A DNA stretch of 64,000 bases, taken from Gemmatimonadota bacterium (GTDB taxonomy: Bacteria > Gemmatimonadota > Gemmatimonadetes > Gemmatimonadales > Gemmatimonadaceae). Below the pieces are notes generated by a model that had not been told where the DNA came from, did no database searches, and saw only the letters and a program-made list of their open reading frames with translations. Position numbers and translations under genes: made by a program. The DNA is taken from assembly GCA_021299375.1 (NCBI GenBank), contig JAJTGR010000059.1, positions 1 to 64,000 on the forward strand, in the 5' to 3' direction. Of this stretch, positions 10,052 to 29,651 are shown one piece after another. Positions within the stretch are counted from its first letter, which is position 1, and each line of letters starts with the position of its first letter.

Positions 10052-10085
10052 GCGCCGCGCGCCGCGGGGCCGGGGGGAGGGCACG

Positions 10086-10754: not shown

Positions 10755-10763
10755 CGCCCGCGC

Positions 10764-12299: not shown

Positions 12300-12312
12300 T
12301 CCGATCCTAATC
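12286..12312 (+). promoter_or_regulatory. three TAA(T/C)C repeats with 11-bp period
   Basis: TAACC (12286-12290), TAATC (12297-12301) and TAATC (12308-12312) are exactly 11 bases apart, just upstream of a promoter (12322-12349). A 12-bp palindrome CGGATTAATCCG (12292-12303) overlaps them. One helical turn between direct repeats is the usual layout of OmpR/PhoB-family sites. Binding by the regulator at 10086 is inference. Confidence 0.55.
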
Positions 12313-12321
12313 TTCTCTCCA

Positions 12322-12349
12322 TTGCCGGATCATGCTGGGGGCGTAGAAT
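12322..12349 (+). promoter_or_regulatory. promoter of the TonB-ExbBD operon
   Basis: TTGCCG (12322-12327), a 16-base spacer and TAGAAT (12344-12349) form a sigma-70-type promoter, about 67 bases ahead of the TonB-family start at 12416. Confidence 0.55.
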
Positions 12350-12415
12350 CGCGGTGTCAGCCCCGGATAGCCCGTCCGGGTGCGACGTAGCCAGCCCGTA
12401 CCCCGGACAAGCGAG

Positions 12416-13132
12416 ATGTTCAACAACCTGCTTGAATCGAAGGCGAAGAAGCAGAAGCGCTTGGGTGGGTCCGTCACCTCCATCGTGGTCCACACGGCCG
12501 TCGTTGCCGCGCTCGTCATCGTGACGAAGAACGCGGGCATCGTGAACGAGAAGCCGAAGGAAGAGAAGGTGGACTTCGTCGAGGTGAAGAAGGACGAGCC
12601 CAAGCCGCCCGAGCCGGAGAAGGCCCCGCCGCCGCCCGACGCGGTGGCCGCGCCGCCCCCGCCAAAGGGCTTCCAGGTGCTCTCGGCTCCCATCGAGATC
12701 CCGAACGTCATCCCCGAGATCGACCTGTCGAAGAAGGTGACCGACGAGGCCGACTTCTCCGGCAAGGGTGTCGCCGGCGGCATCGCGAAAGGGGTCGAAG
12801 GCGGCAAAGGACCGGTCCCGCAGGGCGACCAGCCCTACTTCGACTTCCAGGTCGAAAAGCCCGTCGTGATGGCGCCGGGCGCCCAGGGGCCTGCCTACCC
12901 CGACATGCTCCGCACGGCGGGCATCGAAGGGACCGTGCTCGCGCAGTTCGTGGTCGACACCACGGGGCGCGCCGACATGGGCACCTTCAAGGCGCTCAAG
13001 TCCGACAACGATCTGTTCACGACGTCCGTCAAGAACGCGCTCCAGCGGATGCGCTTCCTCCCCGCCGAGGTGGGGGGCCGCAAGGTGAAGCAGCTCGTGC
13101 AGCAGCCGTTCCAGTTCTCGCTCAACCGCTGA
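12416..13132 (+). CDS. tonB: TonB-family energy transducer
   Basis: Starting at ATG 12416 (MFNNLLESK), the protein has 238 residues: a short cytoplasmic N-terminus with a basic KAKKQKR stretch, one membrane segment (about 19-40), a Pro/Lys/Glu-rich linker spanning the periplasm (repeated EKP, PPEPEKAPPPP) and a TonB C-terminal domain (about 150-238: AYPDMLRTAGIEGTVLAQF). It would pass proton-motive energy from ExbB/ExbD to outer-membrane receptors. It leads an operon with exbB, two exbD genes and a second TonB-like gene. A GTG at 12380 is a less likely start. Confidence 0.88.
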   Translation: MFNNLLESKAKKQKRLGGSVTSIVVHTAVVAALVIVTKNAGIVNEKPKEEKVDFVEVKKDEPKPPEPEKAPPPPDAVAAPPPPKGFQVLSAPIEIPNVIPEIDLSKKVTDEADFSGKGVAGGIAKGVEGGKGPVPQGDQPYFDFQVEKPVVMAPGAQGPAYPDMLRTAGIEGTVLAQFVVDTTGRADMGTFKALKSDNDLFTTSVKNALQRMRFLPAEVGGRKVKQLVQQPFQFSLNR

Positions 13133-13166
13133 GTCCCCACCCTACCGTTTCGCGGAGATCTGTCTC

Positions 13167-13898
13167 ATGAACATGTCGTTGATGGAGCTGTACCACTCGA
13201 TGGGCTGGTTCGCCAAGGGGATCGTGTTCACCCTGCTCGGCATGTCGGCCTTCTCGTTCACGGTGCTCATCCAGAAGTGGTGGTCGATGCGCAAGGCGCA
13301 GGCCGAGACGCGTCGCTTCGCCCCCGAGTTCTCGCAGTTCCTCGAGGAGGACAACCTCAACGAGGCGATCAAGCTGGCCGAAGGCTACAAGAAGTCGCAC
13401 GTTGCCCGGGTGCTCGGTGGCGCGCTGAGCGAGATCCGTCCGCTCATTCAGGACGGCTCGGTCACCGTGGCCGACATCAACTCGGCCGAGCGGGCGGTCG
13501 AGCGTGAAATGCTGATGACGATCGTCGACCTCAAGCGTGGTCTGGGCATCCTCGCCACGGTCGGCGCCACGGCGCCGTTCGTCGGTCTGCTCGGCACGAC
13601 CATGGGTATCGTCAACTCGTTCACCGGCATGGCCACGTCGGGCGCGGGCGGTATCTCCGCCATCGCCGCCGGTGTTGCCGAGGCGCTCATCACGACGGCC
13701 ATCGGTATCGGCGTCGCCATTCCCGCGGTGTGGGCCTTCAACTTCTTCCAGACGAAGATCGACAACCTCACGGCCGAGATGACGTACACGTCGAAGGAAA
13801 TGATCGACTACCTCATCAAGGGCGTGTCGGGGGAGTTCGGCCGCTCGCGCTTCACGCGGGAGTTCAACACGGCCGGACAGCAGTCGATCTCGCAGTAA
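13167..13898 (+). CDS. exbB: ExbB/TolQ/MotA family proton channel protein
   Basis: This 243-residue inner-membrane protein has three membrane segments, at about 15-38, 125-150 and 165-190. The family core around ILATVGATAPFVGLLGTTMGIVNSF (about 126-150) and the glycine-rich ISAIAAGVAEALITTAIGI segment are clear. With ExbD it forms the proton channel that drives TonB, or in the TolQ variant the Tol system. The flanking TonB-like genes favour the Exb assignment. It starts at ATG 13167, 34 bases after tonB. Confidence 0.92.
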   Translation: MNMSLMELYHSMGWFAKGIVFTLLGMSAFSFTVLIQKWWSMRKAQAETRRFAPEFSQFLEEDNLNEAIKLAEGYKKSHVARVLGGALSEIRPLIQDGSVTVADINSAERAVEREMLMTIVDLKRGLGILATVGATAPFVGLLGTTMGIVNSFTGMATSGAGGISAIAAGVAEALITTAIGIGVAIPAVWAFNFFQTKIDNLTAEMTYTSKEMIDYLIKGVSGEFGRSRFTREFNTAGQQSISQ

Positions 13899-13977
13899 GC
13901 CAGTTCTTCACGATCGGTCCGTCGACGGGCGCTCGCTCCGAGCGTCCCGTCGACCGGCTCAACGCAAGGAGTAGCGC

Positions 13978-14442
13978 ATGGGCATGAGCGTAGGCGGCGG
14001 CAGCGGCGTCAAGGCCGAGCCGAACGTCACCCCCATGATCGACGTGATGCTGGTGCTGCTCATCATCTTCATGATCACCATCCCGCAGATCAACGCGGGC
14101 TTCAAGGCGGTCCCACCGGAGGGGCAGAACCTCAAGCCCCACCCGGAAGAAGATGGTGACCAGGTACTCGGTATCGACGATCAGGGGCGGTATTACCTGA
14201 ACAAGCAGCCGGTCCGCAATGAGGATCTCGAGACCCTCGTCAAGGACATCTACGGGAAGGAGCGCGACGACTACATCATGTACGTGAAGGCCCACAAGGA
14301 CCTTCAGTACCTCAAGGTCATCAACGCCCTCGACCTGCTTTCCCGGAGCGGCGTCCGCGTGGCGGCGCTCATCACCGAGCAGACGCCTGGGACGGAGTCA
14401 CTCGTCGAGTCGGATCGCATCAAGCCGGGAGGAAGCCAGTAA
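13978..14442 (+). CDS. exbD: ExbD/TolR family biopolymer transport protein (first copy)
   Basis: This 154-residue protein has one membrane segment at about 18-38. The conserved NVTPMIDVMLVLLIIFM includes the channel Asp (about residue 21), and a periplasmic domain of about 110 residues follows. The ATG at 13978 is preceded by AAGGAGTAG. Its stop overlaps the start of a second, shorter exbD by one base (TAATG). Two different ExbD copies in tandem can form mixed complexes; that is known for other phyla and is inference here. Confidence 0.92.
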   Translation: MGMSVGGGSGVKAEPNVTPMIDVMLVLLIIFMITIPQINAGFKAVPPEGQNLKPHPEEDGDQVLGIDDQGRYYLNKQPVRNEDLETLVKDIYGKERDDYIMYVKAHKDLQYLKVINALDLLSRSGVRVAALITEQTPGTESLVESDRIKPGGSQ

Positions 14443-14849
14443 TGGGTATGTCCGCTGGCGGTGGTGGCAGCAGTCTCAACAACGAGATCAACGTCACTCC
14501 GATGATCGACGTGCTTCTCGTGCTGCTCATCATCTTCATGATGATCATCCCGATGAGCCGGAAGGCCATCGACACGCAGTTGCCCGACCCGAATCCGCAG
14601 CCGGCCCAGCCGAATGTGAATCCGGACCAGATCGTGCTCGAGATCCTGCCGGACGACAAGTACGCGATCAACAAGGAGCCGGTCGAGAAGGCGCAGCTGT
14701 TCACGCGCCTGAAGGCCATCTATGACCCGCGCCCGGAGAAGATCATCTTCGTGAAGGGTGACACGATGACGGTGTATGCGAACGTCATCTGGGCCATGGA
14801 CCAGGCGCGCGGGGCTGGCGTCAAGGTCATCGGTGTCGCGCCCAAGTGA
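14442..14849 (+). CDS. exbD: ExbD/TolR family biopolymer transport protein (second copy)
   Basis: The 135 residues repeat the exbD plan: a short Gly/Ser-rich cytoplasmic start, then NVTPMIDVLLVLLIIFM at about 18-34 with the conserved Asp, then a periplasmic domain ending in GVKVIGVAPK. The periplasmic part is shorter than in the first copy and has a Pro/Asn-rich insert after the membrane segment (LPDPNPQPAQPN). GGAGG lies upstream inside the previous gene. It is translationally coupled to the first copy. Confidence 0.92.
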   Translation: MGMSAGGGGSSLNNEINVTPMIDVLLVLLIIFMMIIPMSRKAIDTQLPDPNPQPAQPNVNPDQIVLEILPDDKYAINKEPVEKAQLFTRLKAIYDPRPEKIIFVKGDTMTVYANVIWAMDQARGAGVKVIGVAPK

Positions 14850-14890
14850 GTAGGTTGGAGGCCTCGACGGGCACCCATTGAGGGCCTCTG

Positions 14891-15814
14891 GTGTTCAATA
14901 CGGCGGGCGAACCCAAACGGGCGCGTCCGCCGTATGTCGTTGTGTCGCCTTCCATTTCCCGCATGGCTGCCTTGCCTCCCAACGCCTCGTCCAACCCGCC
15001 TGCGCCGGCATCGCCGGGCCCGGAGCGTCCCCGCTATCGGCCGCCGATCGGCATTCCCGTCGGCAAACAGCGCCGGGGCGCCAGCTTCGTGCTGGCGGTC
15101 CTGTTGCACGTCCTGATCATCGTGCTGCTGATCGTCCCCTTCACCTCACCGGAGTTGATGCGCGAGGTACTGGGGGCTGGTGGCATCGGCGCGGCCGGAG
15201 GTGGCGGGGGCGGCAATCGGGGAACGGGTGGCCAGATGAAGCAGGAGCGGCTCCAGTTCGTTCGGGTGGCCCCAGCCCCGCCGCCGCCAGCGCCGGTGGT
15301 CCGGCCGCCGGAGATCAAGCCGCTGGTGCCGCCGCCGCCACCACCGCCGCAGCCCAAGCCGACACCGTCGCCGGTACCGCCGTCGCCGGCACCGGCCACC
15401 GATGCCGGCGAAGCCAAGAGCGCGACGCTGGGGACGGGTGGTGGCTCCGGCAACGATGGGAGCGCCGGCAGTGGCCCTGGCAGTGGTGGCGGGGTCGGTT
15501 CCGGCGTTGGCACCGGTCGCGGCAGCAGTGTGGGGCCTGGCACCGGCGGCGGACCGGGAACCGTGTATCCGCCGGCCCCGACCGAGCTCTTCCTTCCGCC
15601 CTTGCCCGTGCCCAACAAGGCCAAGGGCACGATCGTCGTCGTCTTCGACGTCGACTCCACGGGGAAGGTGCTCGACCTGCAGTTCCCGCCCACGAAGGAC
15701 GGATCGTACAACCGCAAGCTGCGCGATGCGCTGGCTGCCATCCGTTTCCGCCCCGCCGTCAACGCGCAGGGGGTACCCATCCGGGCGAAGACCGAGATCA
15801 CCTACTCCCTGTGA
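14891..15814 (+). CDS. second TonB-like protein with Pro-rich and Gly-rich linkers
   Basis: This 307-residue protein (GTG start; ATG at 14963 is an alternative giving 283) has a membrane segment at about 64-84. A glycine-rich tract, a long PPPPP/KP linker and a second Gly/Ser-rich tract follow. The TonB-like C-terminal domain is at about 245-307 (GTIVVVFDVDSTGKVLDLQF, IRFRPAVNAQG). It closes the ExbBD operon, so the cluster has TonB-type proteins at both ends. The two low-complexity tracts are unusual and may set reach through the periplasm. Confidence 0.78.
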   Translation: MFNTAGEPKRARPPYVVVSPSISRMAALPPNASSNPPAPASPGPERPRYRPPIGIPVGKQRRGASFVLAVLLHVLIIVLLIVPFTSPELMREVLGAGGIGAAGGGGGGNRGTGGQMKQERLQFVRVAPAPPPPAPVVRPPEIKPLVPPPPPPPQPKPTPSPVPPSPAPATDAGEAKSATLGTGGGSGNDGSAGSGPGSGGGVGSGVGTGRGSSVGPGTGGGPGTVYPPAPTELFLPPLPVPNKAKGTIVVVFDVDSTGKVLDLQFPPTKDGSYNRKLRDALAAIRFRPAVNAQGVPIRAKTEITYSL

Positions 15815-15877
15815 TCGGTGCAGGGAGGTAGCTTGCGCCTGCGCGCAGCACCCCCTCCCCCCTCTCCCTCCACTCGC

Positions 15878-17368
15878 ATGGGGCTGTTCGACAGGAAGCC
15901 GATCGCTGTGCTCGACGACGGCGAACACGGCATGCGCCGCACACTCGGCGCGGGCGACCTCATCATGCTGGCGATCGGCGCCGTCATCGGCGCGGGCATC
16001 TTTTCCTCGCTGGGTACGGCCGCGGCCGGCGAAGTCCTCGCCGACGGAACCGTCGTGCGCTACGGCGCCGGCCCCGCGCTGGTGCTCTCGTTCATCCTGC
16101 TTGGCGCCGTATGCGCTCTGGCGGCGATGTGCTATGCCGAACTGGCGTCGATGATTCCGCAAGCCGGCAGTGCGTACGCGTACTCGTATGCGACCCTCGG
16201 TGAAATCGTCGCCTGGGTGGTCGGCTGGGCGCTCATCCTCGAGTATGCCGTCGGCAATGTAGCGGTGGCCATCGGGTGGGCAGGGTACTTCACGTCGCTG
16301 CTGTCCGGCTTCGGCATTGACCTGCCCGGCTGGATGACCCACGGCTACTGGAACGTGAAGGCCAGTGGCGATCCGGCGATCCGGGCGCTGCTCGACAGCG
16401 CGCCCCGTCTTGCCGGCGTCCCCATCCTGGTCAACCTGCCGGCGTTCGGCGTCGTGGCGGCCATCACCATGTTGCTGATGCAGGGGGCGAAGGAGAGCAC
16501 CCGTGTCAACAACATCATGGTGATCATCAAGCTGGTCGTGCTGGCGCTGTTCGTGATTGTCGGCGCCATGCACATCGACCCGGCCAACTACAAGCCGTTT
16601 GCCCCGAATGGATTTCGCGGCATCCATCAGGGCGCGGCAATCGTGTTCTTCGCCTACATCGGCTTCGACGCGATCTCGACGGCGGCCGAGGAAACCCGGA
16701 ACCCCCAGCGGAACCTGCCGATCGGCATTCTCGGCGGGTTGGCGGTCTGCACGTTGATCTACGTGATCGTGGGCCTGGTTGCGACGGGGCTGGTGCCCTA
16801 CGACCAGCTGCGCAGCGCTGATCCGCTGGCCAAGGCGTTGTCGCTGGCCGGCCTGGATACCGCGAGCTGGATCGTCGCGGCTGGAGCGGTGGTGAGCATG
16901 TCGGCCGTACTGCTCGTGTTCCAGTACGGACAACCGCGGATTTTCTACGCCATGGCCCGCGACGGGCTGCTGCCCAAGTTCGCGGCCAAGCTCGACCCGA
17001 AGACGCGTACGCCGCGCGTGACCACCTTGCTGACCGGCGTACTGGTGGCCCTTGGCTCGCTGGTGGCCGATGATGCCGCCACCTACGACCTCACCAACAT
17101 CGGTACGCTGGCGGCCTTTGCGGTGGTGTGCCTTGGGGTGCTGGTCCTGCGCATTCGCGAACCGGATCGGCCGCGGCCGTTCAAGGTACCGTTCGTGTGG
17201 GCGGTGACGCTCATCGGCGCCGGAGCCTGCGTCTTCGTGATGCAGGGGCTTCCCGCCAGTGCCTGGATGGCGTTCGGCGCCTGGATGGTGATCGGCCTCG
17301 CCTTGTACTTCGCCTACGGCTACCGGAACTCGGTGCTTCGCCGTCCCGGGTCGACCCCCTCTCGCTGA
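15878..17368 (+). CDS. APC-superfamily amino acid permease
   Basis: Starting at ATG 15878 (MGLFDRKPI), the 496-residue protein has about 12 membrane segments. The APC hallmark GDLIMLAIGAVIGAGIFSSLG is at about 27-47. It also has AYSYATLGEIVAW and the EETRNPQRNLP loop typical of the cationic amino acid transporter branch (YfnA/CAT-like). It would import an amino acid with protons; the substrate cannot be read from sequence. It is followed 12 bases later by a DAACS symporter on the same strand, so the pair may be co-transcribed. An upstream in-frame codon at 15818 gives an Arg/Pro-rich extension unlike the family. Confidence 0.88.
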   Translation: MGLFDRKPIAVLDDGEHGMRRTLGAGDLIMLAIGAVIGAGIFSSLGTAAAGEVLADGTVVRYGAGPALVLSFILLGAVCALAAMCYAELASMIPQAGSAYAYSYATLGEIVAWVVGWALILEYAVGNVAVAIGWAGYFTSLLSGFGIDLPGWMTHGYWNVKASGDPAIRALLDSAPRLAGVPILVNLPAFGVVAAITMLLMQGAKESTRVNNIMVIIKLVVLALFVIVGAMHIDPANYKPFAPNGFRGIHQGAAIVFFAYIGFDAISTAAEETRNPQRNLPIGILGGLAVCTLIYVIVGLVATGLVPYDQLRSADPLAKALSLAGLDTASWIVAAGAVVSMSAVLLVFQYGQPRIFYAMARDGLLPKFAAKLDPKTRTPRVTTLLTGVLVALGSLVADDAATYDLTNIGTLAAFAVVCLGVLVLRIREPDRPRPFKVPFVWAVTLIGAGACVFVMQGLPASAWMAFGAWMVIGLALYFAYGYRNSVLRRPGSTPSR

Positions 17369-19829: not shown

Positions 19830-20780
19830 TTAGACCTCCACCCCCAGCAGCCGCCTCGCCCGCCGCACCGCGCCGCGCGCGGCGTCCACCTCGTCGACCC
19901 GCACCGTCGCGCCTGGAACGGCGCTCTTGAGCCGCTGCTCGAGCCGCTTCCGCACCAGCGACCCGCGCGTGAGCAGGCCTCCGGCGAAAGCCACCGGGAT
20001 TGCCGCCCGCTCGTCGACGAAGCAGCGCCGCGCGAGCGTCCGCACATGCAGCGCGAGTTCCTCGACGCAGAAGCTGATCAAGGCATTCGCCCGCAGGTCA
20101 CCCGTGGCCGCGACCTGCGCCACGACGGGAGCCAGTAGCGCGTACGCGCTGGGTGTCGCCTCCGAGGCCCACGGGATCACGTCGTCGAGGGATTCGAGTT
20201 CGAGGGCGGTGAGGATGGCGCCCGTGAGGGCGGTCTCCGGTTCACGGCCATCCTGCGCCGCCGTGATCACGCCAAGGGCCCGGCGACCAAGCCACGCCGC
20301 ACTCCCCTCGTCACCCACGTTCGGTCCCCACCCACCGCAGCGTTCCACGCGCCCGTCGGGCGCCTTGGAAAAGGCGACCGAGCCCGTACCCGCGATCAGC
20401 AGCACCCCGGCGGACTCGCCGAAGGCATCGTCCATCGCGATCGTGGCGTCGGCTTGCACCGACACGTCGTCGGCCACGCGCCGCGCGGCCAGCGCCGACC
20501 ACAGGGCTTGCGCCGCCCGCTCCTGGCCTGCACCGGCCACCCCGACCACGCAAACCGCTGGGCGGGTTTCGGTGCGTTCGGCGGCAGCCAGCGCCTCCCC
20601 GATCAGTGCCTTGATCACGTCCGCCGCGACGCCTTCGTGCCCTGGCGTGAGGGCACTCGCTGGCCCTTCGACGCGCGCCAGGGTTGCACCGGTGGCGTCG
20701 CTGAGCAGCACCCGGGTTCGGCTGCCTCCGCCGTCCACACCCACCACCAATGGAGTCGGATCGAGTGGTCCGGCGCTCAT
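19830..20780 (-). CDS. BadF/BadG-family amino-sugar kinase (GlcNAc/MurNAc kinase-like)
   Basis: This 316-residue ASKHA-fold ATPase has the phosphate-1 motif VVGVDGGGSRTRVLL at about 10-24, the GTGSVAFS motif at about 128-135 and GGWGPNVGDEGSAAWLG at about 148-164. These are the marks of the BadF/BadG/BcrA/BcrD branch that includes N-acetylglucosamine kinase and the MurK kinase for MurNAc/GlcNAc. The ATG at 20780 overlaps the stop of the upstream symporter by four bases. With a symporter and a NagB-PIG-L enzyme in the same operon, phosphorylation of imported GlcNAc and/or MurNAc is the likely job. Confidence 0.82.
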   Translation of the reverse strand: MSAGPLDPTPLVVGVDGGGSRTRVLLSDATGATLARVEGPASALTPGHEGVAADVIKALIGEALAAAERTETRPAVCVVGVAGAGQERAAQALWSALAARRVADDVSVQADATIAMDDAFGESAGVLLIAGTGSVAFSKAPDGRVERCGGWGPNVGDEGSAAWLGRRALGVITAAQDGREPETALTGAILTALELESLDDVIPWASEATPSAYALLAPVVAQVAATGDLRANALISFCVEELALHVRTLARRCFVDERAAIPVAFAGGLLTRGSLVRKRLEQRLKSAVPGATVRVDEVDAARGAVRRARRLLGVEV

Positions 20781-22315
20781 GAACGAGTCCCCTGATCGGA
20801 AGGCGTCGCCACCGGCGCCGCGTGTGTGAACGAGCTGAGTAGTCCCGTGAAGAAAGTAAGCGAGGTCCCGATCAACACATACCAGGGCCACGCGATCTGC
20901 GCGAATGGCGCCAGCGTGGGGGCCAGCGAGGGAAACCAGCCGCTCAGCGCCTTGGCGAAGACCACGAAACTCATGGTGCCGATGCCAACGGCCATCCCCG
21001 TAATGGCGTCACGCTGCAGCGCCCGAGGTACCAGCATGGCCAGAAAGAATGCGCCCAACAGGCCGCCGTACGTGAAGGAGGCGATGGAGAGCGCAATGGT
21101 CACCACCGGCGTCCCTTCGTTGCGATACAGCATGGCACCGCCGATCAGGATCGCGGCCCACACGAGCGTGAACGTCTTGCTGATGCGGAGCAGGCCCGGG
21201 TCGTCCGGCTTCCTGCCCGTGAGCGGCAGGTACAGGTCATGCAGCGTCGCCGCCGCCAGCGAATTGAGGGCACCGCTGACGGTGCTCATGGCCGCCGCCA
21301 GGATGGCGGCGATGACGAGCCCCGTGAGACCCGGCGGCATCGCCTCCACGATGAACCGCGGGAAGATCGCGTCGGGACGGGCGAAGGTCTCCCCCTGGTA
21401 GTAGGCGAACAGCCCGGTGCCGATGAGCAGGAACAGCCCGAACTGCGCCAGCACCACCACGCCGCTGCCGATGAGGGACCGGCGCGCATCGGCAAGGCTG
21501 CCGGACGCCATGAGCCGCTGCACGATCAGTTGGTCGACGCCATGCGACGCCATGCTCAGGAACGCGCCGCCGATCAGCCCTGCCCACAGCGTGTGCGGCC
21601 GGTCGATGCCGGTGTAGGTGTCGATGAGTCGCAGCTTGCCCTGTGCGTCGGCACCGCGCAGGATGGCCGACCACCCGCCCTCGACTCCCTGGCCGAGCAG
21701 CCATAGCGCCGACAGGCCGCCGATCAGGTACACCCCGGTCTGCACGACATCGGTCCACACCACGGCGCGCATACCGCCGTGATACGTGTACAGCACGGTG
21801 AACGCACCGAGAATGAGGATCGACAGCGGACCGACATACGCGGGGGGCACGACCGGGCCGATGATCAGGCCCACAGGGATGGCGGTGGCGAAGACGCGCA
21901 CCGAATCGCCGAAGGCGCGGGTGACCATGAAGACCACCGACGCAAACCGTCGGGTGGCGAGCCCAAAGCGCTTCTCCAGCATGGCGTACGCCGTGACCAG
22001 TTCCCCCTGGTAGTAGCGCGGCAGGAGCGTGTACGCGATGATCACACGGCCCACGACGTACCCCGCTGCCACCTGCAGGAATGCCAGGTTGCCGACGTAT
22101 GCCAACCCGGGAATCGAGATGAAGGTCAGGGCGCTCGTTTCGGTGGCCACTACCGAGAAGAGGATGGCCCACCACGGAATGCGCTGGCTCGCCACGAAGT
22201 AGTCACGCGCATCCTTCTGGTCGCGCCCGAGCCAGATGCCCAGCAGCGTGGTCCCCACGAGATACACGATCAGCACCAGCCAGTCGATGCCGGTGAAGGC
22301 GTTGCTCATGCTCAT
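20777..22315 (-). CDS. sodium:solute symporter, probable amino-sugar importer
   Basis: This 512-residue protein of the SSS family has about 13 membrane segments. Typical elements are an N-terminal WLVLIVYLVGTTLLGIWLGR, the RIPWWAILFSVVATETSALTFISIPG sodium-site region and AAAMSTVSGALNSLAAATLHDLY. Such symporters (NagP/SglT-like) import sugars with sodium. Its place between a BadF-type kinase and a NagB-PIG-L fusion makes N-acetylglucosamine, or related wall sugar, the likely substrate. The start is ATG 22315, about 25 bases after the nagB stop; an ATG six bases inside is equally possible. Confidence 0.87.
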   Translation of the reverse strand: MSMSNAFTGIDWLVLIVYLVGTTLLGIWLGRDQKDARDYFVASQRIPWWAILFSVVATETSALTFISIPGLAYVGNLAFLQVAAGYVVGRVIIAYTLLPRYYQGELVTAYAMLEKRFGLATRRFASVVFMVTRAFGDSVRVFATAIPVGLIIGPVVPPAYVGPLSILILGAFTVLYTYHGGMRAVVWTDVVQTGVYLIGGLSALWLLGQGVEGGWSAILRGADAQGKLRLIDTYTGIDRPHTLWAGLIGGAFLSMASHGVDQLIVQRLMASGSLADARRSLIGSGVVVLAQFGLFLLIGTGLFAYYQGETFARPDAIFPRFIVEAMPPGLTGLVIAAILAAAMSTVSGALNSLAAATLHDLYLPLTGRKPDDPGLLRISKTFTLVWAAILIGGAMLYRNEGTPVVTIALSIASFTYGGLLGAFFLAMLVPRALQRDAITGMAVGIGTMSFVVFAKALSGWFPSLAPTLAPFAQIAWPWYVLIGTSLTFFTGLLSSFTHAAPVATPSDQGTRS

Positions 22316-22339
22316 GCCCCCGCCACCTGCCCGCTGGCC

Positions 22340-24298
22340 TTACGCGATGACATAGGCCTCCATCGCGAAGTACTCGGCCAGACCGAGCTGATCGAGCTGG
22401 CTGGCCGTGGTCTTGTTGCGCTGCTCCACGCGCTGCCAGAACTCCCGTTCGTCCTGACCGGGGAAGGGGGCCGAGTCCTTCTGTGACTGGTGCTTGAAGA
22501 TCGCCTGGATCTTGAGCGTGAGTTCCTCCTGCGACAGCGGCACCAGCACGGTCGCCTCGGTGATTGGCCACTCCTGCCAGGCGCCACGGTACAGCCAGAC
22601 CTCAGGACGCGCCGCCCCGGTGCCATACACGTCGTCGAGCGCCCGGTCGATGGCTTCCTTGCACATGCGGTGTGTGCCGTGCGGATCGGACAGGTCACCA
22701 GCCACGAAGATCAGCTCGGGCTGCAGTTCGCGGAGCAGGTCGGCGACAATGGCCACATCCACCGGCCCGATCGGGTCCTTGCGTACCTTGCCCGTTTGGT
22801 AGAAGGGCAGGTTGAGGAAGCGGGCATTGGCCTTCGACAGCCCCATCACCTCGATCCCGCTCACGGCCTCCGATTCACGGATGATGCGCTTGATGTCCTG
22901 CACCTCGGGGATATCCACGTCCCCGGGCTGCTTGCGCTGCAGGAAGTCCTGCACGATGGTCGCCAGCTCCTGCACGGTGGCGTTCCGTCCCATGTGCTCC
23001 TCGTCGAGACGCACCAGGAAGTCGAGATAGCGGCGCACGTCGTGATCGAAGACGGCGATGTTGCCGCTCGTCATGTAGGCGACGGTCATGTCATTGCCGT
23101 TCTCCACGAACTTGCGGAGAATGCCGCCCATCGAGATCACGTCGTCATCAGGGTGGGGCGAGAAACAGATGGTCTTGAGGCGGCGTGGCAGCTTGCTCTT
23201 GCCGCGGATCTTGGCGCCCAGGATGTTGAACACCAGCCCGTTCACCGCCCCCGGGGACCCATGTCGTGCCACCAGCGACGACAGGCCGTTCTCGGCGTAA
23301 TCGTGCTGGGTGAGCTTGAGGATCGCCTTGCCACACCGCGCCGCCAGCCATGTCACGGCACGGACGGCCAGCGCTTCCTCCCATACCACCTCATCGATCA
23401 GCCATGGGGTCGCCACGCGGGTGAGATCCGCGGCGGCTGCGTCGTCGACATAGAACGTCGTGTTGGGATGCCGCTGGAGGAACGTGGCTGCCACGGCGCG
23501 GTCGATTTCCCCCTCGACGGCACGACGCACGACGCCGGCCTTGTGCTCGCCCGTGGCGAGAATCGCGATCTCGCGGGCGCCGAGAATGGAGGCAATCCCC
23601 ATGGTGATTGCCTCCCGCGGCACGTTCTCCTCGCCGAAGAAGTCGGCGGCGGCGTCGCGCCGGGTGATACTGTCGAGGTGCACCAGGCGCGTGCGGCTCG
23701 TCTCGCCGGAGCCGGGTTCATTGAAGCCGATGTGACCCGTCTTGCCGATGCCGAGCAGCTGAAAGTCGATGCCGCCCGCCGCCACGATGGCCGCCTCGTA
23801 CGCCTGGCAGGCCGTCTCCACATCCCCCCGGGCAAGAGACCCGTCGGGGATGTGGACGTTCACCGGATCGATGTCGACGTGAGAGAACAGGTTCTCCCAC
23901 ATGAACCGGTGGTACGAGTGGATGCTGTCGGCCCGCATCGGGTAGTACTCGTCGAGGTTGAACGTCACGACGTGCCGGAAGCTCAGCCCCTCCTCGCGAT
24001 GCAGGCGAATGAGTTCGCGATACACGCCGATGGGCGTTGATCCGGTCGCAAGCCCCAGCACCAGGGGACGGCTGCTGGCCGCGCGCTCGCGGATGAGGGT
24101 GGCGATGCGTCCCGCGACCAGCCGGGCCATCGCGCCGTGCTCGTCGATGATGATCGTGGGAATGCGCTCACGCGCGGTGCCGTCGACGCCGTCGAGGGCG
24201 AAAGGCGATCCCCCAACGCGCACAGGCCCGCCACTCGTCGCGAGTGAGCGGGCCTGCAACACGTCAGGAGCCGCCGAGTGTCCGGTGGCCAGTGACAT
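22340..24298 (-). CDS. nagB: NagB-PIG-L fusion: glucosamine-6-phosphate deaminase with deacetylase domain
   Basis: This 652-residue fusion has a NagB-type deaminase (about 48-310) with LGLATGSTP, FNLDEYYPM and GIGKTGHIGFNEPGSG. The usual Asp of GxGxDGHI is Thr, as I recall for other fused NagB forms. A PIG-L deacetylase domain (about 385-600) follows, with the metal motif SPHPDDD and the later DPHGTH histidines. The deaminase turns GlcN-6-P into fructose-6-P and ammonia. The PIG-L half could supply the N-deacetylation normally done by NagA, which is not in the window; that is inference. It heads an operon with a symporter and a kinase. Confidence 0.88.
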   Translation of the reverse strand: MSLATGHSAAPDVLQARSLATSGGPVRVGGSPFALDGVDGTARERIPTIIIDEHGAMARLVAGRIATLIRERAASSRPLVLGLATGSTPIGVYRELIRLHREEGLSFRHVVTFNLDEYYPMRADSIHSYHRFMWENLFSHVDIDPVNVHIPDGSLARGDVETACQAYEAAIVAAGGIDFQLLGIGKTGHIGFNEPGSGETSRTRLVHLDSITRRDAAADFFGEENVPREAITMGIASILGAREIAILATGEHKAGVVRRAVEGEIDRAVAATFLQRHPNTTFYVDDAAAADLTRVATPWLIDEVVWEEALAVRAVTWLAARCGKAILKLTQHDYAENGLSSLVARHGSPGAVNGLVFNILGAKIRGKSKLPRRLKTICFSPHPDDDVISMGGILRKFVENGNDMTVAYMTSGNIAVFDHDVRRYLDFLVRLDEEHMGRNATVQELATIVQDFLQRKQPGDVDIPEVQDIKRIIRESEAVSGIEVMGLSKANARFLNLPFYQTGKVRKDPIGPVDVAIVADLLRELQPELIFVAGDLSDPHGTHRMCKEAIDRALDDVYGTGAARPEVWLYRGAWQEWPITEATVLVPLSQEELTLKIQAIFKHQSQKDSAPFPGQDEREFWQRVEQRNKTTASQLDQLGLAEYFAMEAYVIA

Positions 24299-24320
24299 GG
24301 GGAGTCGTGATGGTGAAATG

Positions 24321-24338
24321 GGCGCCCTGGTGGGCGCC
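24321..24338 (-). terminator. hairpin between the ErpA-like gene and the nagB fusion
   Basis: GGCGCCC (24321-24327) and GGGCGCC (24332-24338) form a perfect 7-bp stem with loop TGGT. Read on the minus strand it lies 9 bases after the ErpA-like stop and 23 bases before the nagB start, so it could be a terminator or attenuator separating the two. Confidence 0.5.
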
Positions 24339-24346
24339 TGGATACA

Positions 24347-24703
24347 TCAGGCGGAGAAGGAGCTGCCGCAGCCGCAGCCGCCGGTGGAGTTCGGATTCTT
24401 GAACGTGAAGCCCGAGCCCTGCATCGACGACACGTAGTCGATCGTCGTGCCGCTCAGGTACTGCGCCGAAAACGGATCGACAAACACCTTGATGCCCTCG
24501 ACGTCCAAGGTGATGTCGTCCTCGGCATGGGTGTCCTCGATCACGAGGCCGTACTTGAAGCCGCTGCACCCGCCGGGCATCACCGAAACGCGCAGGCCGC
24601 CCTTCTCCGGCGTCACGCCCTCGGCGTCCATGAACTTGCGCACTTCGCCTGCGGCCACAGGCGTGATGATCACCATGACTTCCGGCTGCTGCATCGTGCT
24701 CAT
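24347..24703 (-). CDS. erpA: HesB/IscA-type iron-sulfur insertion protein (ErpA-like)
   Basis: Started at ATG 24703 with GGAGA upstream, the protein has 118 residues, the normal A-type carrier length. The three conserved cysteines are visible: PGGCSGFKYG at about residues 43-52 and the C-terminal GGCGCGSSF. It delivers Fe-S clusters to target enzymes. A longer reading from 24877 is Arg/Cys-rich and not family-like. It has no obvious link to the amino-sugar genes on either side; it simply lies between them on the same strand. Confidence 0.93.
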   Translation of the reverse strand: MSTMQQPEVMVIITPVAAGEVRKFMDAEGVTPEKGGLRVSVMPGGCSGFKYGLVIEDTHAEDDITLDVEGIKVFVDPFSAQYLSGTTIDYVSSMQGSGFTFKNPNSTGGCGCGSSFSA

Positions 24704-24886
24704 GTCTGCTCTCCGAAGTGGCCGGCACTGATCCCGGCCAGAATGACCGCACCGCGCCGGTCCGGTCGCCCTCGCGATCGATCCCGTGGGTGTCGTGTCG
24801 TGCTGGGGAAAAAATAGCGAGAGGATCACTCCCCTTGCAAGAAACCCCGTGGAGGCCTGCGAGATCCGGGCGTCCACGGGGCGGCG

Positions 24887-26092
24887 TCATCGCGATTCCA
24901 TCCGGGACAGGCCGTCGAGCGCACCCACGGCGGCATCCGCCACGGCGGTCCGTACCGCACCGATCTTCCGGTTCTCCCGGGTGGGATTCACCCGATTGGT
25001 GAGTAGCAGCACGAAGACGCCGCGCTGGGGGTCCATCCAGATCGAGGTCCCGGTGAATCCCGTGTGCCCAAAGGCGGTGCGAGCGAGGCGGCGACCAGCC
25101 GAATTGCTTCCGGTGGCCGTCTCCCAGCCGAGGCCGCGCCGGGAGAGCGTCGTATCCTGCGGGGTGATGAACGCGGCGACCGTCACCGAGTCGAACACGC
25201 GGACCCCGTCGAGCCGGCCAAAGTTGAGATAGGCCCGCGCAAACCGCGCGAGATCGCGGCCGGTGGAGAAGAGCCCGGCGTGTCCGGAGACGCCGCCCAG
25301 TCGCGCCGCGTTCTCATCGTGCACCTCGCCGCGCAGGTGTCGCTGCCGCCACGGATCCACTTCCGTGGGGGCGGTCCGCGCCCGCCACGCGGCAGGGGGG
25401 AGGTAGCGGGTATCGGCCATGCCGAGGGGCGCAAAGACGTGTCTCTGCTCGTACTGATCGAGTGAGGTACCGCTGACTCGCTCGACCAGCTTGCCCAGCA
25501 GGATGAACCCGAGGTCGCTGTACACGGTACGTACGCCGGGAAGCGTATCGGGGGCCGTCGCGAACAGCTGCGCCGACGCTTCGGCCGGGGTCGCGGCTTC
25601 CTTGTACAGCGCTCGCCAGGCAGGCAGCCCCGAGGCGTGCGTCAGCAGGTGTCGAACGGTGATGCGGTCGGCCCCGGTGGCGGTCCACTCCGGGAGGTAA
25701 CGCACGACCGGCGTGTCGAGTCCGACCTTGCCGGCACCGACCAGCTGGAGCACGGCGGACGTTGTGCCGATGACCTTGGTGAGCGACGCCAAATCCCAGA
25801 CCGTCCGGGCACTCGGCCGCGTACCGTCGGCGGCATCGAGCTGCCCGGCCCCGTACTCGGCGATCAGGCCGTCGGCCGTCCCGACGGCGGCGTACGCTCC
25901 GGGAAACGCGCCGTCGGCGATCGCGCGATCGAGGGTCGTGCGCAGACTGTCGAAGGTCGCCCGCGCCGTGGCCGCGGGGACCCGTGCCGTCGGGGGCGCG
26001 GCATGCGCGCCCCCCCGCAACGCGGTGCAGGCGCTGACCAGCAGACTTGCGCCGATCAGCAGGCCGGGACGCAGCGCCCGACGGGGATGCAT
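24887..26092 (-). CDS. beta-lactamase-fold serine hydrolase lipoprotein (AmiE-like)
   Basis: The 401 residues begin with a lipoprotein signal (LLIGASLLVSAC, Cys at about 22). A class C beta-lactamase/DD-peptidase fold follows: the nucleophile motif SLTK at about 100-103, a YSD motif near 190 in place of the usual YxN, and a C-terminal HTGFTG (KTG-like) triad. The start is the ATG at 26092; a longer reading from 26155 adds a basic stretch. It is divergent from a NamZ-type muramidase. In Bacillus subtilis the neighbour of namZ is AmiE, a hydrolase of this fold that removes the peptide from MurNAc, so a muropeptide amidase role is plausible. Esterase or peptidase activity cannot be excluded. Confidence 0.82.
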   Translation of the reverse strand: MHPRRALRPGLLIGASLLVSACTALRGGAHAAPPTARVPAATARATFDSLRTTLDRAIADGAFPGAYAAVGTADGLIAEYGAGQLDAADGTRPSARTVWDLASLTKVIGTTSAVLQLVGAGKVGLDTPVVRYLPEWTATGADRITVRHLLTHASGLPAWRALYKEAATPAEASAQLFATAPDTLPGVRTVYSDLGFILLGKLVERVSGTSLDQYEQRHVFAPLGMADTRYLPPAAWRARTAPTEVDPWRQRHLRGEVHDENAARLGGVSGHAGLFSTGRDLARFARAYLNFGRLDGVRVFDSVTVAAFITPQDTTLSRRGLGWETATGSNSAGRRLARTAFGHTGFTGTSIWMDPQRGVFVLLLTNRVNPTRENRKIGAVRTAVADAAVGALDGLSRMESR

Positions 26093-26215
26093 ACTTAGCT
26101 TGCGGCGGGGGACCGTCGCCGGGCACACGCGACGCTGGGGGAAACGACGGCTCATGTGTTCGTGAGTGGCAGAAGGGCGCGACCGGTGCACCACGAACCT
26201 TCGGGGGGAACGCGA

Positions 26216-27571
26216 GTGAAGGCGATCAAGAGGCTGGTCTGGTGGTCGGCGATCGGTATCGGCATGGTCGTGGCCGGGTGCGCCCGCAGTGGTCCGCCGG
26301 ACGGTGGCCCGACGCCCGATGACGGGATCGACGATCCGCGAGGTGGTGGTATGCGCCGGCAGGTGCCCGATCGCAAGGTGCGGCCCGGGATCACCGTCCT
26401 GCTGGACGATAGCATCAAGCTCGTGGCCGGCAAGCGGGTCGCGCTGGTCACCAACCAGACGGGGGTGGACGAACGCGGTCGGCGGTCCATCGACCTGCTG
26501 TTCGGCGATCCGCGGGCGCTTCGGGCAGGCGTCAAGCTGGTGAAGCTGTTCGCGCCCGAACATGGGGCTCGCGGCACGGAGGATCGATCGGGATTGGGCG
26601 ACGAGCGCGACGAGAAGACCGGGCTCGTCGTCCATTCGCTCTACCAGCGCAGCACCATGGCGCCGGCCGACAGCCTGCTGCAGGACGTTGATGTCCTGGT
26701 GGTGGACCTGCAGGATATCGGCACCCGTACGTGGACCTACGTGGGCGTCGTGCTGTACGCCATGCAGGCGGGGGAGCGCCGGAACCTCCCCGTGCTGGTC
26801 CTCGACCGGCCCAATCCGATTGCCGGGACCTTCACGGAAGGTGCACTGCTCGACTCGGCACTGGCGGATGCCTCCTATCCGACGGCCTCGAACACGACGA
26901 ACGGGTTTTCGCTGTTCCCGATGCCGCTTCGCCATGGCCTGACGATGGGGGAATTGGCCAGGCTGTTCCAGGCCAACCTCAAGATGAGCACGCGGCTGAC
27001 GGTGGTGCCAATGCGGAACTGGCGGCGCGGCCTGTGGTTCGACCAGACCGGGCTGCCGTGGGTTCGGCCGTCGCCCAACATGCCCTCCGTCACGACCGCG
27101 CTGTTCTATCCGGCGCTGGTGCCATTCGAAGCGAGCAACGTGTCGGTGGGGCGCGGCACGGACCAACCCTTCCAGCAGTTCGGCGCCCCGTGGCTGCGCG
27201 CCGATTCGGTCGCGCGGCTCCTGGAGGACCTTTCCCTCACCGGCGTGCGCTTCAAGGCGGATCGCTTCACCCCCGACAAACCGGGGGACAACAAGTACGG
27301 GGGACGGAGCATTCCCGGTGTGCGCCTCGAACTGCTCGACCGGGAGCGGGTGCAGCCGGCGCGAATCGGGGCCGCGATCCTGTGGGCACTGGCGCGGGTG
27401 CATCGGGATTCGTTGCAGATCAACGGGCCCGGGTTCGATCGGCGCATGGGATCGGCCCGGATGCGTGAGGCTCTGCTCGGCGGGGCCGATCCCGATGCCG
27501 TGCTCGATCGGTTGCTGCCGGCCATCGTGGCGTTCGAAAAGGAAGCCCGCCGGTTCCATCTCTACCGTTGA
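26216..27571 (+). CDS. namZ: NamZ-like exo-N-acetylmuramidase (DUF1343)
   Basis: Starting at GTG 26216, which follows GGGGGGAA, the 451-residue protein has a lipoprotein signal ending MVVAGC. The DUF1343 domain covers most of the rest: VALVTNQTGVDERG, KLFAPEHGARG, VDLQDIGTRTWTYV, LDRPNPIAG, PSPNMPS and the C-terminal FEASNVSVGRGT. The B. subtilis member is an exo-beta-N-acetylmuramidase that releases MurNAc from peptidoglycan fragments. Location at the membrane or periplasm fits wall turnover. With the divergent AmiE-like hydrolase and the downstream amino-sugar operon it suggests cell-wall salvage. The earlier ATG at 26156 is a weaker start. Confidence 0.87.
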   Translation: MKAIKRLVWWSAIGIGMVVAGCARSGPPDGGPTPDDGIDDPRGGGMRRQVPDRKVRPGITVLLDDSIKLVAGKRVALVTNQTGVDERGRRSIDLLFGDPRALRAGVKLVKLFAPEHGARGTEDRSGLGDERDEKTGLVVHSLYQRSTMAPADSLLQDVDVLVVDLQDIGTRTWTYVGVVLYAMQAGERRNLPVLVLDRPNPIAGTFTEGALLDSALADASYPTASNTTNGFSLFPMPLRHGLTMGELARLFQANLKMSTRLTVVPMRNWRRGLWFDQTGLPWVRPSPNMPSVTTALFYPALVPFEASNVSVGRGTDQPFQQFGAPWLRADSVARLLEDLSLTGVRFKADRFTPDKPGDNKYGGRSIPGVRLELLDRERVQPARIGAAILWALARVHRDSLQINGPGFDRRMGSARMREALLGGADPDAVLDRLLPAIVAFEKEARRFHLYR

Positions 27572-27672: not shown

Positions 27673-28314
27673 ATGCAAGCACTGTGGAGCGCCATCGTTC
27701 GGGGGTACCTGCAGGTCATCGCCCCCGTGGCGGACTGGCTGGTGGCCAAGCGTGTGCGCCCCAACACCATCACGACAATCGGCGCGATCTGCACGTGCAC
27801 GGCGGGCGTGATCTTTGCGACGGGGCACATCAGCACCGGCGGCTGGTTCCTGGGCCTCACCGCCCTGTTCGATGTGCTGGACGGCACGGTGGCCCGTCGG
27901 ACCGGACAGAGTTCGACCTTCGGCGCGTTCTACGACTCGACACTCGATCGGGTCGCCGATGGCTTCCTGCTGGGCGGACTGGTGGTGTTTTATGCCACCC
28001 ATCCGAGGTACATGAACAACGGCATGGTGATTGTCACCGTGCTGGCGCTGATCGCGACGTTCCTCACGTCGTACACCAACGCCCGGGCTGAAGGGCTCGG
28101 CTTTTCCGCGCGCGTGGGCGTGTTGCAGCGTCCCGAGCGCATCACCTTGCTGTCCGCTCCGCAGGCCTTTTTCGGCCTCGCGTTGGACGGATGGGTGCTG
28201 GCCGCGATCGTCACGCTGCTCATGGTGACGGCCTGGGTCACGTTCTTTCAGCGCATGGCGTACGTGCATCGCATCACTACAGCGGCGACGACTTCTACCA
28301 CTCCTGGAGAATAA
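27673..28314 (+). CDS. CDP-alcohol phosphatidyltransferase, probable phosphatidylinositol-type synthase
   Basis: This 213-residue membrane enzyme has the full CDP-OH-P signature, DVLDGTVARRTG followed by FGAFYDSTLDR (D-G-x2-A-R-x8-G-x3-D-x3-D) at about residues 69-95, and about five membrane segments. The family joins a CDP-diacylglycerol to an alcohol headgroup. Six bases on comes inositol-3-phosphate synthase, so the headgroup is most likely inositol phosphate or inositol, giving a phosphatidylinositol lipid. PgsA (glycerophosphate) is the main alternative. Confidence 0.87.
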   Translation: MQALWSAIVRGYLQVIAPVADWLVAKRVRPNTITTIGAICTCTAGVIFATGHISTGGWFLGLTALFDVLDGTVARRTGQSSTFGAFYDSTLDRVADGFLLGGLVVFYATHPRYMNNGMVIVTVLALIATFLTSYTNARAEGLGFSARVGVLQRPERITLLSAPQAFFGLALDGWVLAAIVTLLMVTAWVTFFQRMAYVHRITTAATTSTTPGE

Positions 28315-28319
28315 GCGAA

Positions 28320-29651
28320 GTGTCCGACTCGACCCGCGGGACTCCCGCGCCCATTGCCCCGGCGACGGGGAAGCTCGCCATTTTCACGCCGGGCCTCGGC
28401 GCCGTGGCGACGACGTTCATCGCAGGTGTCGAGCGTGTGCGTCGCGGGCTGTCCGCGCCCATCGGCTCGCTCACCCAGATGGCGACCATCCGCCTCGGCA
28501 AGCGCACCGACCACCGCAGCCCGTTGATCAGGGACTTCGTGCCGCTCGCGTCGCTCGACGACATCGTTTTCGGCGCCTGGGATCCCATTCCGGATGACGC
28601 GTACACGGCGGCCACCAAGGCCGGTGTGCTCGTCAAGGACGACCTCGAGCCGATCGCCGACTTCCTCAAGAGCATCACACCGATGCCGGCCGTGTTCGAG
28701 AGCCGCTACGTCACGCGCATCACGGGCGCGACGAACGTGAAGACCGGCCCGACCAAGAAGGACCTCGCCGACCAGCTGCGCGCCGACATCCGCAGCTTCA
28801 TGGCGGCCCACGGCGCCTCACGCGGCGCCATGGTGTGGTGCGGCTCCACGGAGACGTACATCAAGGCCGGTCCGCAGCACCAGACCATCGCGGCCTTCGA
28901 GAAGGCCATGGAAGAGAACGACGACGCCATCGCGCCGTCGATGCTGTATGCGTACGCGGCCATCATGGAAGGCATTCCGTACTGCAACGGGGCGCCGAAC
29001 CTCTCGGCCGACTTCCCGGCGCTCATCGACCTCGCCAACCAGCGCGGCGTGGCCATCTCGGGCAAGGACTTCAAGACCGGCCAGACGTGGATGAAGACCG
29101 TCATCGCGCCGGGCATGAAGGCCCGCATGCTCGGCCTCGAGGGGTGGTACTCCACCAACATCCTCGGCAACCGCGATGGCGAGGTGCTCGACGATCCCGC
29201 GTCGTTCAAGACGAAAGAGGAGTCGAAGCTCTCCGTGCTGCACACCATCCTGCAGCCGGAGACGTACCCGGAGCTCTACAAGGACTTCTCGCACGTGGTG
29301 CGCATCAACTACTACCCGCCGCGCGGCGACAACAAGGAAGGCTGGGACAACATCGACATCAAGGGGTGGCTTGGCTACCCGATGCAGATCAAGGTCAACT
29401 TCCTGTGCCGTGACTCCATCCTGGCGGCTCCGCTCGTGCTCGACCTGGCGCTGTTCTCGGACTTTGCCCAGCGCGCCGGCATGAAGGGCATTCAGGAATG
29501 GTTAAGCTTCTATTACAAGGCACCCATGGCCGCTGCGGGACTCCAGCCCGAGCATGATCTTTTCATTCAGCAGACCAAGCTGAAGAACACGCTCCGCCAC
29601 CTGATGGGGGAGGAGCAGATCACGCACCTCGGCCTCGAGTATTATCAGTGA
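28320..29651 (+). CDS. ino1: inositol-3-phosphate synthase
   Basis: I start it at GTG 28320 with GGAG upstream, giving 443 residues, since the longer frame is shadow sequence. This NAD-dependent enzyme turns glucose-6-phosphate into 1L-myo-inositol-1-phosphate. Family features include the NAD-binding start TPGLGAVATTFIAGVERVR, GKDFKTGQTWMKTVIAPGMK, STNILGNRDGEVLDDP and the lysine-rich TKEESKLSVL active-site region. It directly follows a CDP-alcohol phosphatidyltransferase, which defines a short inositol-lipid pathway. Its stop overlaps the start of a small lipoprotein gene (ATGA). Confidence 0.95.
   Translation: MSDSTRGTPAPIAPATGKLAIFTPGLGAVATTFIAGVERVRRGLSAPIGSLTQMATIRLGKRTDHRSPLIRDFVPLASLDDIVFGAWDPIPDDAYTAATKAGVLVKDDLEPIADFLKSITPMPAVFESRYVTRITGATNVKTGPTKKDLADQLRADIRSFMAAHGASRGAMVWCGSTETYIKAGPQHQTIAAFEKAMEENDDAIAPSMLYAYAAIMEGIPYCNGAPNLSADFPALIDLANQRGVAISGKDFKTGQTWMKTVIAPGMKARMLGLEGWYSTNILGNRDGEVLDDPASFKTKEESKLSVLHTILQPETYPELYKDFSHVVRINYYPPRGDNKEGWDNIDIKGWLGYPMQIKVNFLCRDSILAAPLVLDLALFSDFAQRAGMKGIQEWLSFYYKAPMAAAGLQPEHDLFIQQTKLKNTLRHLMGEEQITHLGLEYYQ

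What the first reader, a model, noticed from the sequence alone, without database searches (positions are those of the whole stretch)
19830..27571. Peptidoglycan amino-sugar salvage region built around a NagB-PIG-L fusion and BadF-type kinase
One strand carries a BadF-type kinase, an SSS symporter and a deaminase-deacetylase fusion. Next to them an AmiE-like serine hydrolase is divergent from a NamZ-like exo-muramidase. Together they could release MurNAc/GlcNAc from wall fragments, import the sugars, phosphorylate them, deacetylate them (PIG-L instead of NagA) and deaminate them to fructose-6-phosphate. No NagA, MurQ or PTS gene is present. The member families are known; the complete non-PTS route with PIG-L as the deacetylase step is the new proposal.
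Basis: partly seen in the sequence, partly recalled or inferred. Interest (0 to 1): 0.62.

Follow-up and report, generated by a model that had tools for sequence, protein, structure and literature searches.

The report
Cell-wall sugar salvage lacking NagA
A Gemmatimonadota bacterium carries a gene cluster to take apart and eat cell-wall sugars in which the usual deacetylase (NagA) is missing from the whole genome, and a deacetylase domain fused to the next enzyme of the pathway very probably does that job; the same fusion occurs in hundreds of other species and I found no report of a test.

Summary
In detail: 19830-27571 carries a BadF-type sugar kinase, SSS symporter and NagB-PIG-L fusion in one minus-strand run, plus a beta-lactamase-fold lipoprotein divergent from a NamZ lipoprotein. 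NagA is absent from the genome and from all 144 sampled members of its class (two profiles). MurQ, however, is present elsewhere, beside anmK and nagZ. The cluster NamZ-(NagZ)-hydrolase-IscA-[fusion]-SSS-kinase is conserved through the class, with the fusion as a separable module. In NagA-less flavobacteria the same fusion lies in a murQ/ampG/nagZ/anmK recycling operon. PIG-L metal ligands are invariant in 178 full-length fusions. Best reading: the PIG-L domain is a NagA replacement that feeds GlcN-6-P to the fused deaminase. This is inferred, not shown. Against an obligatory role: 43 class members have MurQ but neither NagA nor the fusion, and a derived Bacteroidota clade of fusions coexists with NagA. 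The fusion is an annotated subfamily (PRK02122), and SSS plus BadF kinase (Tannerella) and NamZ/AmiE/NagZ (Bacillus) are known; the NagA replacement is the new part.

The parts
19830..20780 (-). BadF-type amino-sugar kinase (MurNAc/GlcNAc kinase-like), 316 aa
   Evidence: PF01869 E 7.8e-36; best solved match 8zo3 MurNAc/GlcNAc kinase E 1.7e-28, GGWG-GDEGS motif; only such kinase over cut-off in the genome
20777..22315 (-). SSS-family sodium:solute symporter, 512 aa
   Evidence: PF00474, TIGR00813 over cut-off; closest solved structure 5nv9, a bacterial sodium:solute symporter, E 8.9e-47
22340..24298 (-). NagB-PIG-L fusion: residues 45-298 GlcN-6-P deaminase, 373-652 PIG-L deacetylase
   Evidence: NF002557 912 bits; fold model pLDDT 87; NagB Z 37, BshB Z 22.6, diacetylchitobiose deacetylase Z 21.1
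24347..24703 (-). IscA/ErpA-type Fe-S protein, kept in the cluster in most relatives; role here unknown
   Evidence: PF01521, TIGR00049; kept in relatives
24887..26092 (-). Beta-lactamase-fold serine hydrolase with lipoprotein signal; AmiE/PBP4B-like candidate MurNAc-peptide amidase
   Evidence: PF00144 E 1.5e-64; best NCBIfam PBP4B, below cut-off; SLTK, YSD and HTG motifs in the sequence
26216..27571 (+). NamZ exo-beta-N-acetylmuramidase with lipoprotein signal (upstream start at 26156 possible)
   Evidence: PF07075 E 4.8e-65, PF20732 E 2.5e-37; 4k05 E 8.8e-56

Best explanation
This is a cell-wall sugar salvage cluster. Outside the cytoplasm the AmiE-like hydrolase strips peptides from MurNAc, and NamZ (with NagZ, encoded in the cluster in many relatives and elsewhere in this genome) releases MurNAc and GlcNAc. 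The SSS symporter imports the sugars with sodium and the BadF-type kinase makes MurNAc-6-P and GlcNAc-6-P. MurQ (unlinked, next to anmK and nagZ) turns MurNAc-6-P into GlcNAc-6-P. The PIG-L half of the fusion, a zinc hydrolase, removes the acetyl group in place of the absent NagA, and the NagB half deaminates the GlcN-6-P to fructose-6-P. Shown here: gene content, order, conservation, absence of NagA, presence of MurQ, intact active-site residues, predicted folds. Inferred: every substrate, the cell compartments and the direction of flux.
For: NagA absent from the genome (best E 8.4e-5) and, with two different profiles, from all 144 sampled class members; only the 6 genomes of the outlying lineage have a NagA-like protein, and those lack the fusion and MurQ and have a stand-alone NagB. 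No stand-alone NagB in this genome. MurQ present in 96 of 96 fusion carriers of the class. Cluster order conserved within genus and family and in distant members. Independent context: in 13 loci, mostly named flavobacteria, the fusion is divergent from a DeoR regulator and MurQ, followed in most by GHL10, AmpG, NagZ and AnmK, and 30 of 39 searched fusion carriers outside the phylum, including all these flavobacteria, have no NagA. Metal ligands H382, D385, H543 and base D384 invariant, H540 changed in one, among 178 full-length fusions; NagB residues D116, H189, E194 invariant. By sequence the PIG-L half is nearest to archaeal diacetylchitobiose deacetylase, itself an amino-sugar catabolic PIG-L.
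Against: No substrate shown. 43 of 144 class members have MurQ and no NagA but also no full-length fusion, and the BadF kinase is nearly universal, so deacetylation of GlcNAc-6-P may be dispensable or done otherwise. In Bacteroidota NagA and fusion are not mutually exclusive (13 of 56 fusion carriers have NagA), and in one genome NagA lies directly upstream of the fusion in a locus with a GlcNAc 2-epimerase. In Longimicrobia-like genomes the fusion lies among lysine/arginine-type biosynthetic genes. In four genomes the fusion is away from the SSS-kinase cluster.
Confidence: 0.72

Rival explanations
1. The PIG-L half deacetylates a different N-acetyl sugar, for instance free GlcNAc, MurNAc, chitobiose or a GlcNAc conjugate, as its PIG-L relatives diacetylchitobiose deacetylase, BshB and MshB do. 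The kinase would then phosphorylate glucosamine, or two separate activities would be fused.
For: Closest solved relatives act on unphosphorylated GlcNAc compounds; some fusion loci are not near wall-recycling genes; a derived Bacteroidota clade coexists with NagA.
Against: The flavobacterial operons put the fusion next to MurQ and AnmK, whose joint product is GlcNAc-6-P, with no NagA in the genome. Fusion to a GlcN-6-P deaminase argues for a 6-phosphate substrate.
Confidence: 0.16
2. The PIG-L half is not the main GlcNAc-6-P deacetylase. GlcNAc-6-P passes mainly to UDP-GlcNAc without deacetylation, or another PIG-L or amidohydrolase deacetylates it, and the fusion is chiefly a deaminase with a side or regulatory domain.
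For: 43 class members have MurQ without NagA or fusion; three further PIG-L-like matches in this genome; weak amidohydrolase matches exist.
Against: The PIG-L active site is kept across phyla at 50-60% identity, which a purely structural domain would not need; a deaminase without a source of GlcN-6-P has no catabolic role.
Confidence: 0.09
3. The genes are unrelated neighbours and there is no salvage pathway.
For: An IscA-type gene lies among them; MurQ is unlinked.
Against: NamZ, NagZ, hydrolase, SSS and kinase keep their order with and without the fusion over many genera.
Confidence: 0.03

Closest known systems
NCBIfam NF002557 / PRK02122, 'glucosamine-6-phosphate deaminase-like protein'
   Same: Same two-domain architecture, full length, 912 bits against a cut-off of 384
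   Different: Nothing structural; the family's name assigns no role to the PIG-L half
Tannerella forsythia murT-murK-murQ (PMC5790795, PMC10465942)
   Same: PTS-independent MurNAc uptake by an SSS symporter followed by a BadF-type kinase and MurQ
   Different: MurQ is not in the cluster here; fusion, NamZ and hydrolase are added; the kinase is of the GGWG-GDEGS type, nearer to the solved MurNAc/GlcNAc kinase 8zo3 and human NAGK than to Tannerella-type MurK
Bacillus subtilis murQ-murR-murP-amiE-nagZ-namZ (gene order from own knowledge; recycling in PMC5061867)
   Same: AmiE-like hydrolase, NagZ and NamZ grouped for sequential release of wall sugars
   Different: SSS plus kinase in place of the PTS transporter MurP; the fusion in place of NagA
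Archaeal diacetylchitobiose deacetylase (Dac) pathway
   Same: PIG-L deacetylase used in amino-sugar catabolism (own knowledge); closest solved relative by sequence
   Different: Dac acts on unphosphorylated sugar and is a separate protein; here the domain is fused to NagB and a 6-phosphate is expected
NagA-NagB pathway
   Same: Same overall conversion, GlcNAc-6-P to fructose-6-P
   Different: NagA is an unrelated amidohydrolase, absent here

Membership tests
NF002557/PRK02122 NagB-PIG-L family | Full-length match over curated cut-off with both domains | tested here: met
   912 bits, model positions 23-648 of 653
GlcN-6-P deaminase NagB | NagB fold and catalytic Asp, His, Glu | tested here: met
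   Z about 37 to NagB structures; D116, H189, E194 invariant, while the E. coli D141 position is T/S/N in this family
PIG-L/LmbE deacetylase | HPDD and HxxH zinc motifs on the PIG-L fold | tested here: met
   SPHPDDD and DPHGTH; Z 22.6 to BshB
Functional NagA replacement | NagA missing where the fusion is present | tested here: inconclusive
   0 of 144 in the class and 30 of 39 other carriers lack NagA, but 13 of 56 Bacteroidota carriers have it
Functional NagA replacement | Deacetylation of GlcNAc-6-P | not testable with these tools
   Needs an enzyme assay
MurTKQ-type MurNAc route | SSS symporter adjacent to BadF kinase | tested here: met
   ATGA overlap; kept in relatives
MurTKQ-type MurNAc route | MurQ in the same operon | tested here: not met
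   MurQ is on another contig
MurNAc/GlcNAc kinase | Curated family cut-off or MurNAc-permissive pocket | tested here: inconclusive
   NF046058 below cut-off; GGWG at the lactyl-pocket positions as in human NAGK, by alignment (pocket residues after PMC10465942)
NamZ | NamZ N and C domains | tested here: met
   Both over Pfam cut-off
AmiE MurNAc-L-Ala amidase | AmiE-specific identity and activity | tested here: inconclusive
   General beta-lactamase family only; best NCBIfam PBP4B below cut-off

The most novel reading that the evidence does not exclude
A PIG-L domain fused to NagB is a second, unrelated GlcNAc-6-P deacetylase used by hundreds of Gemmatimonadota, Bacteroidota and other species, passing GlcN-6-P to its own deaminase half; in a derived Bacteroidota clade that coexists with NagA the PIG-L half has changed its role.
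Probability: 0.55. Interest if true: 0.65.

Novelty: new variant of a known kind. Interest (0 to 1): 0.52.

Why it matters
NagA is treated as the standard step between wall or chitin sugars and central metabolism. If a PIG-L domain does this step in whole classes of bacteria, pathway reconstructions that call GlcNAc use 'incomplete' there for lack of nagA are wrong, and a widely distributed protein annotated only as 'deaminase-like' gains a function that one enzyme assay can test.

Tried and rejected
(1) 'No MurQ': rejected, MurQ found. (2) Strict mutual exclusion of NagA and fusion: true within the class but not in Bacteroidota (13 of 56 against 10 of 92, Fisher p 0.06 towards co-occurrence). 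(3) Degenerate PIG-L in genomes that have NagA: rejected, the metal ligands are intact there too; residue 544 beside the metal ligand H543 varies, mainly in one derived clade. Carriers of that clade have NagA in 11 of 20 genomes against 2 of 32 of the rest, p 1e-4, but shared ancestry is not corrected for, and R544 is not a clean marker: one murQ-linked fusion (L230) also lacks it. (4) Kinase presence as a predictor of the fusion: rejected, the kinase is nearly universal. (5) Anti-phage role of the fusion: no match in PADLOC. (6) Literature: no paper in the searched library names both PIG-L and nagB, nor PIG-L with GlcN-6-P deaminase, fusion and nagA; most subscription journals are not covered. 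(7) Sensitivity caveat: in the stricter nagA searches the Bacillus subtilis control did not ring, although that species is known to have nagA, so the nagA absence in the class was rechecked with an independent profile; the Bacteroidota counts were not rechecked.
Full report
What is there. The stretch holds a minus-strand run of hydrolase (24887-26092), IscA/ErpA-type protein (24347-24703), NagB-PIG-L fusion (22340-24298), SSS symporter (20777-22315) and BadF-type kinase (19830-20780), with NamZ (26216-27571) divergent on the plus strand. Symporter stop and kinase start overlap as ATGA. The hydrolase and NamZ both begin with lipoprotein-type signals (VSAC, VAGC), so both are probably outside the cytoplasm. 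Family matches are far beyond chance.

Genome check. The window lies in a 4.48 Mb, 96% complete genome whose closest named relatives are Gemmatimonadota. A nagA profile finds only weak matches inside much longer or unrelated frames (best E 8.4e-5). MurQ is present on contig C87 at 363.7 bits, directly beside AnmK (465 bits, over cut-off) and a NagZ-like GH3 (below its cut-off). There is one NagB-type gene in the genome, the fusion, and one kinase of this family over cut-off.

Distribution in the phylum. In 150 genomes of the phylum the fusion is over cut-off in 96, all within the 144 members of the window's class. NagA is found in none of the 144, by the public profile and by a profile built here; the six genomes of the outlying lineage have NagA-like proteins and stand-alone NagB, and lack MurQ and fusion. 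MurQ occurs in 139 of 144, including all 96 fusion carriers (p 0.004 against the 48 without; shared ancestry not corrected). That leaves 43 genomes with MurQ and neither NagA nor a full-length fusion, the main caveat to an obligatory role.

Gene order. NamZ, hydrolase, IscA, fusion, SSS and kinase keep their order in the genus and most family members examined, and largely in some distant genera. A GH3 of the NagZ type is part of the cluster in many relatives. Around the kinase of 14 relatives without a full-length fusion the same cluster usually stands without it, and in four others the fusion is elsewhere in the genome. The fusion is thus a module that joins or leaves a stable cluster for MurNAc release, import and phosphorylation. 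In Longimicrobia-like members it lies beside LysX- and ArgC-type genes, which this explanation does not cover.

Outside the phylum. A scan of species genomes found at least 553 stretches encoding a relative of the fusion, the best 80 of them in Gemmatimonadota, Bacteroidota, Planctomycetota, Ignavibacteria and Zixibacteria. In flavobacteria such as Robiginitalea, Flagellimonas and Maribacter the fusion is divergent from a DeoR regulator and MurQ and is followed in most by GHL10, an AmpG-type muropeptide transporter, NagZ and AnmK. None of those genomes searched has NagA, and 30 of 39 carriers searched outside the phylum lack it. This is a recycling operon complete except for NagA, with the fusion in its place. 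In a draw of 148 Bacteroidota, 56 have the fusion and 23 NagA, 13 both. In the tree, the fusions of 11 of those 13 genomes fall in one derived clade; one of them sits in a locus with a carbohydrate esterase, GlcNAc 2-epimerase and NagA, where NagA would already supply the deaminase.

Active sites and fold. A model with mean pLDDT 87 shows a NagB domain (residues 45-298, Z about 37) and a PIG-L domain (373-652; BshB Z 22.6, diacetylchitobiose deacetylase Z 21.1, MshB Z 17.7). Zinc ligands H382, D385, H543 and the presumed base D384 are invariant in 178 full-length fusions (a few loci were fetched twice), H540 in all but one; K470, R474, E477 and K607 are also invariant and K507 nearly so. Some of these may bind a 6-phosphate, which I could not test for want of coordinates. 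Assignments of metal ligands and base rest on established knowledge of MshB and BshB. The kinase is nearest among solved structures to a MurNAc/GlcNAc kinase (8zo3). Its GGWG motif at the lactyl-binding positions resembles human NAGK, which phosphorylates muramyl dipeptide (PMC10465942), so dual use of MurNAc and GlcNAc is plausible.

Known and new. PTS-independent MurNAc uptake by SSS plus BadF kinase plus MurQ is known from Tannerella (PMC5790795); grouped AmiE, NagZ and NamZ are known from Bacillus; the fusion has a curated name. No paper in the searched library treats the PIG-L half as a NagA substitute, as far as these term searches show, but most subscription journals are not covered. 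I therefore call it a new variant of a known kind, with the substrate of the PIG-L half as the open and easily tested point.

Noticed in passing
window 27673-29651 (+): A phosphatidylinositol-phosphate-synthase-like gene is followed by a myo-inositol-1-phosphate synthase gene; the pair stays next to the salvage cluster in most family members, suggesting inositol lipids in this group.
   Followed up: partly
window 24347-24703 (-): An IscA/ErpA-type Fe-S protein sits inside the sugar salvage cluster and is kept there even in most relatives without the fusion; its link to the pathway is unexplained.
   Followed up: partly
144 sampled genomes of the window's class: 43 genomes have MurQ but no NagA and no full-length NagB-PIG-L fusion; how they use GlcNAc-6-P is unknown.
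   Followed up: partly
L091, L096, L097 around 9000-16500: In Longimicrobia-like genomes the fusion has a conserved place beside LysX-, ArgC- and aminotransferase-type genes of a lysine/arginine pathway.
   Followed up: partly
L199 3638-12556: A Bacteroidota locus with carbohydrate esterase, GlcNAc 2-epimerase, NagA and the fusion in one run, so NagA and the PIG-L fusion are probably made together there.
   Followed up: partly
L203, L204: Two NagB-PIG-L copies in one Bacteroidota genome stop before the PIG-L half, but both end at a contig end, so they are probably assembly cuts rather than real truncations.
   Followed up: yes
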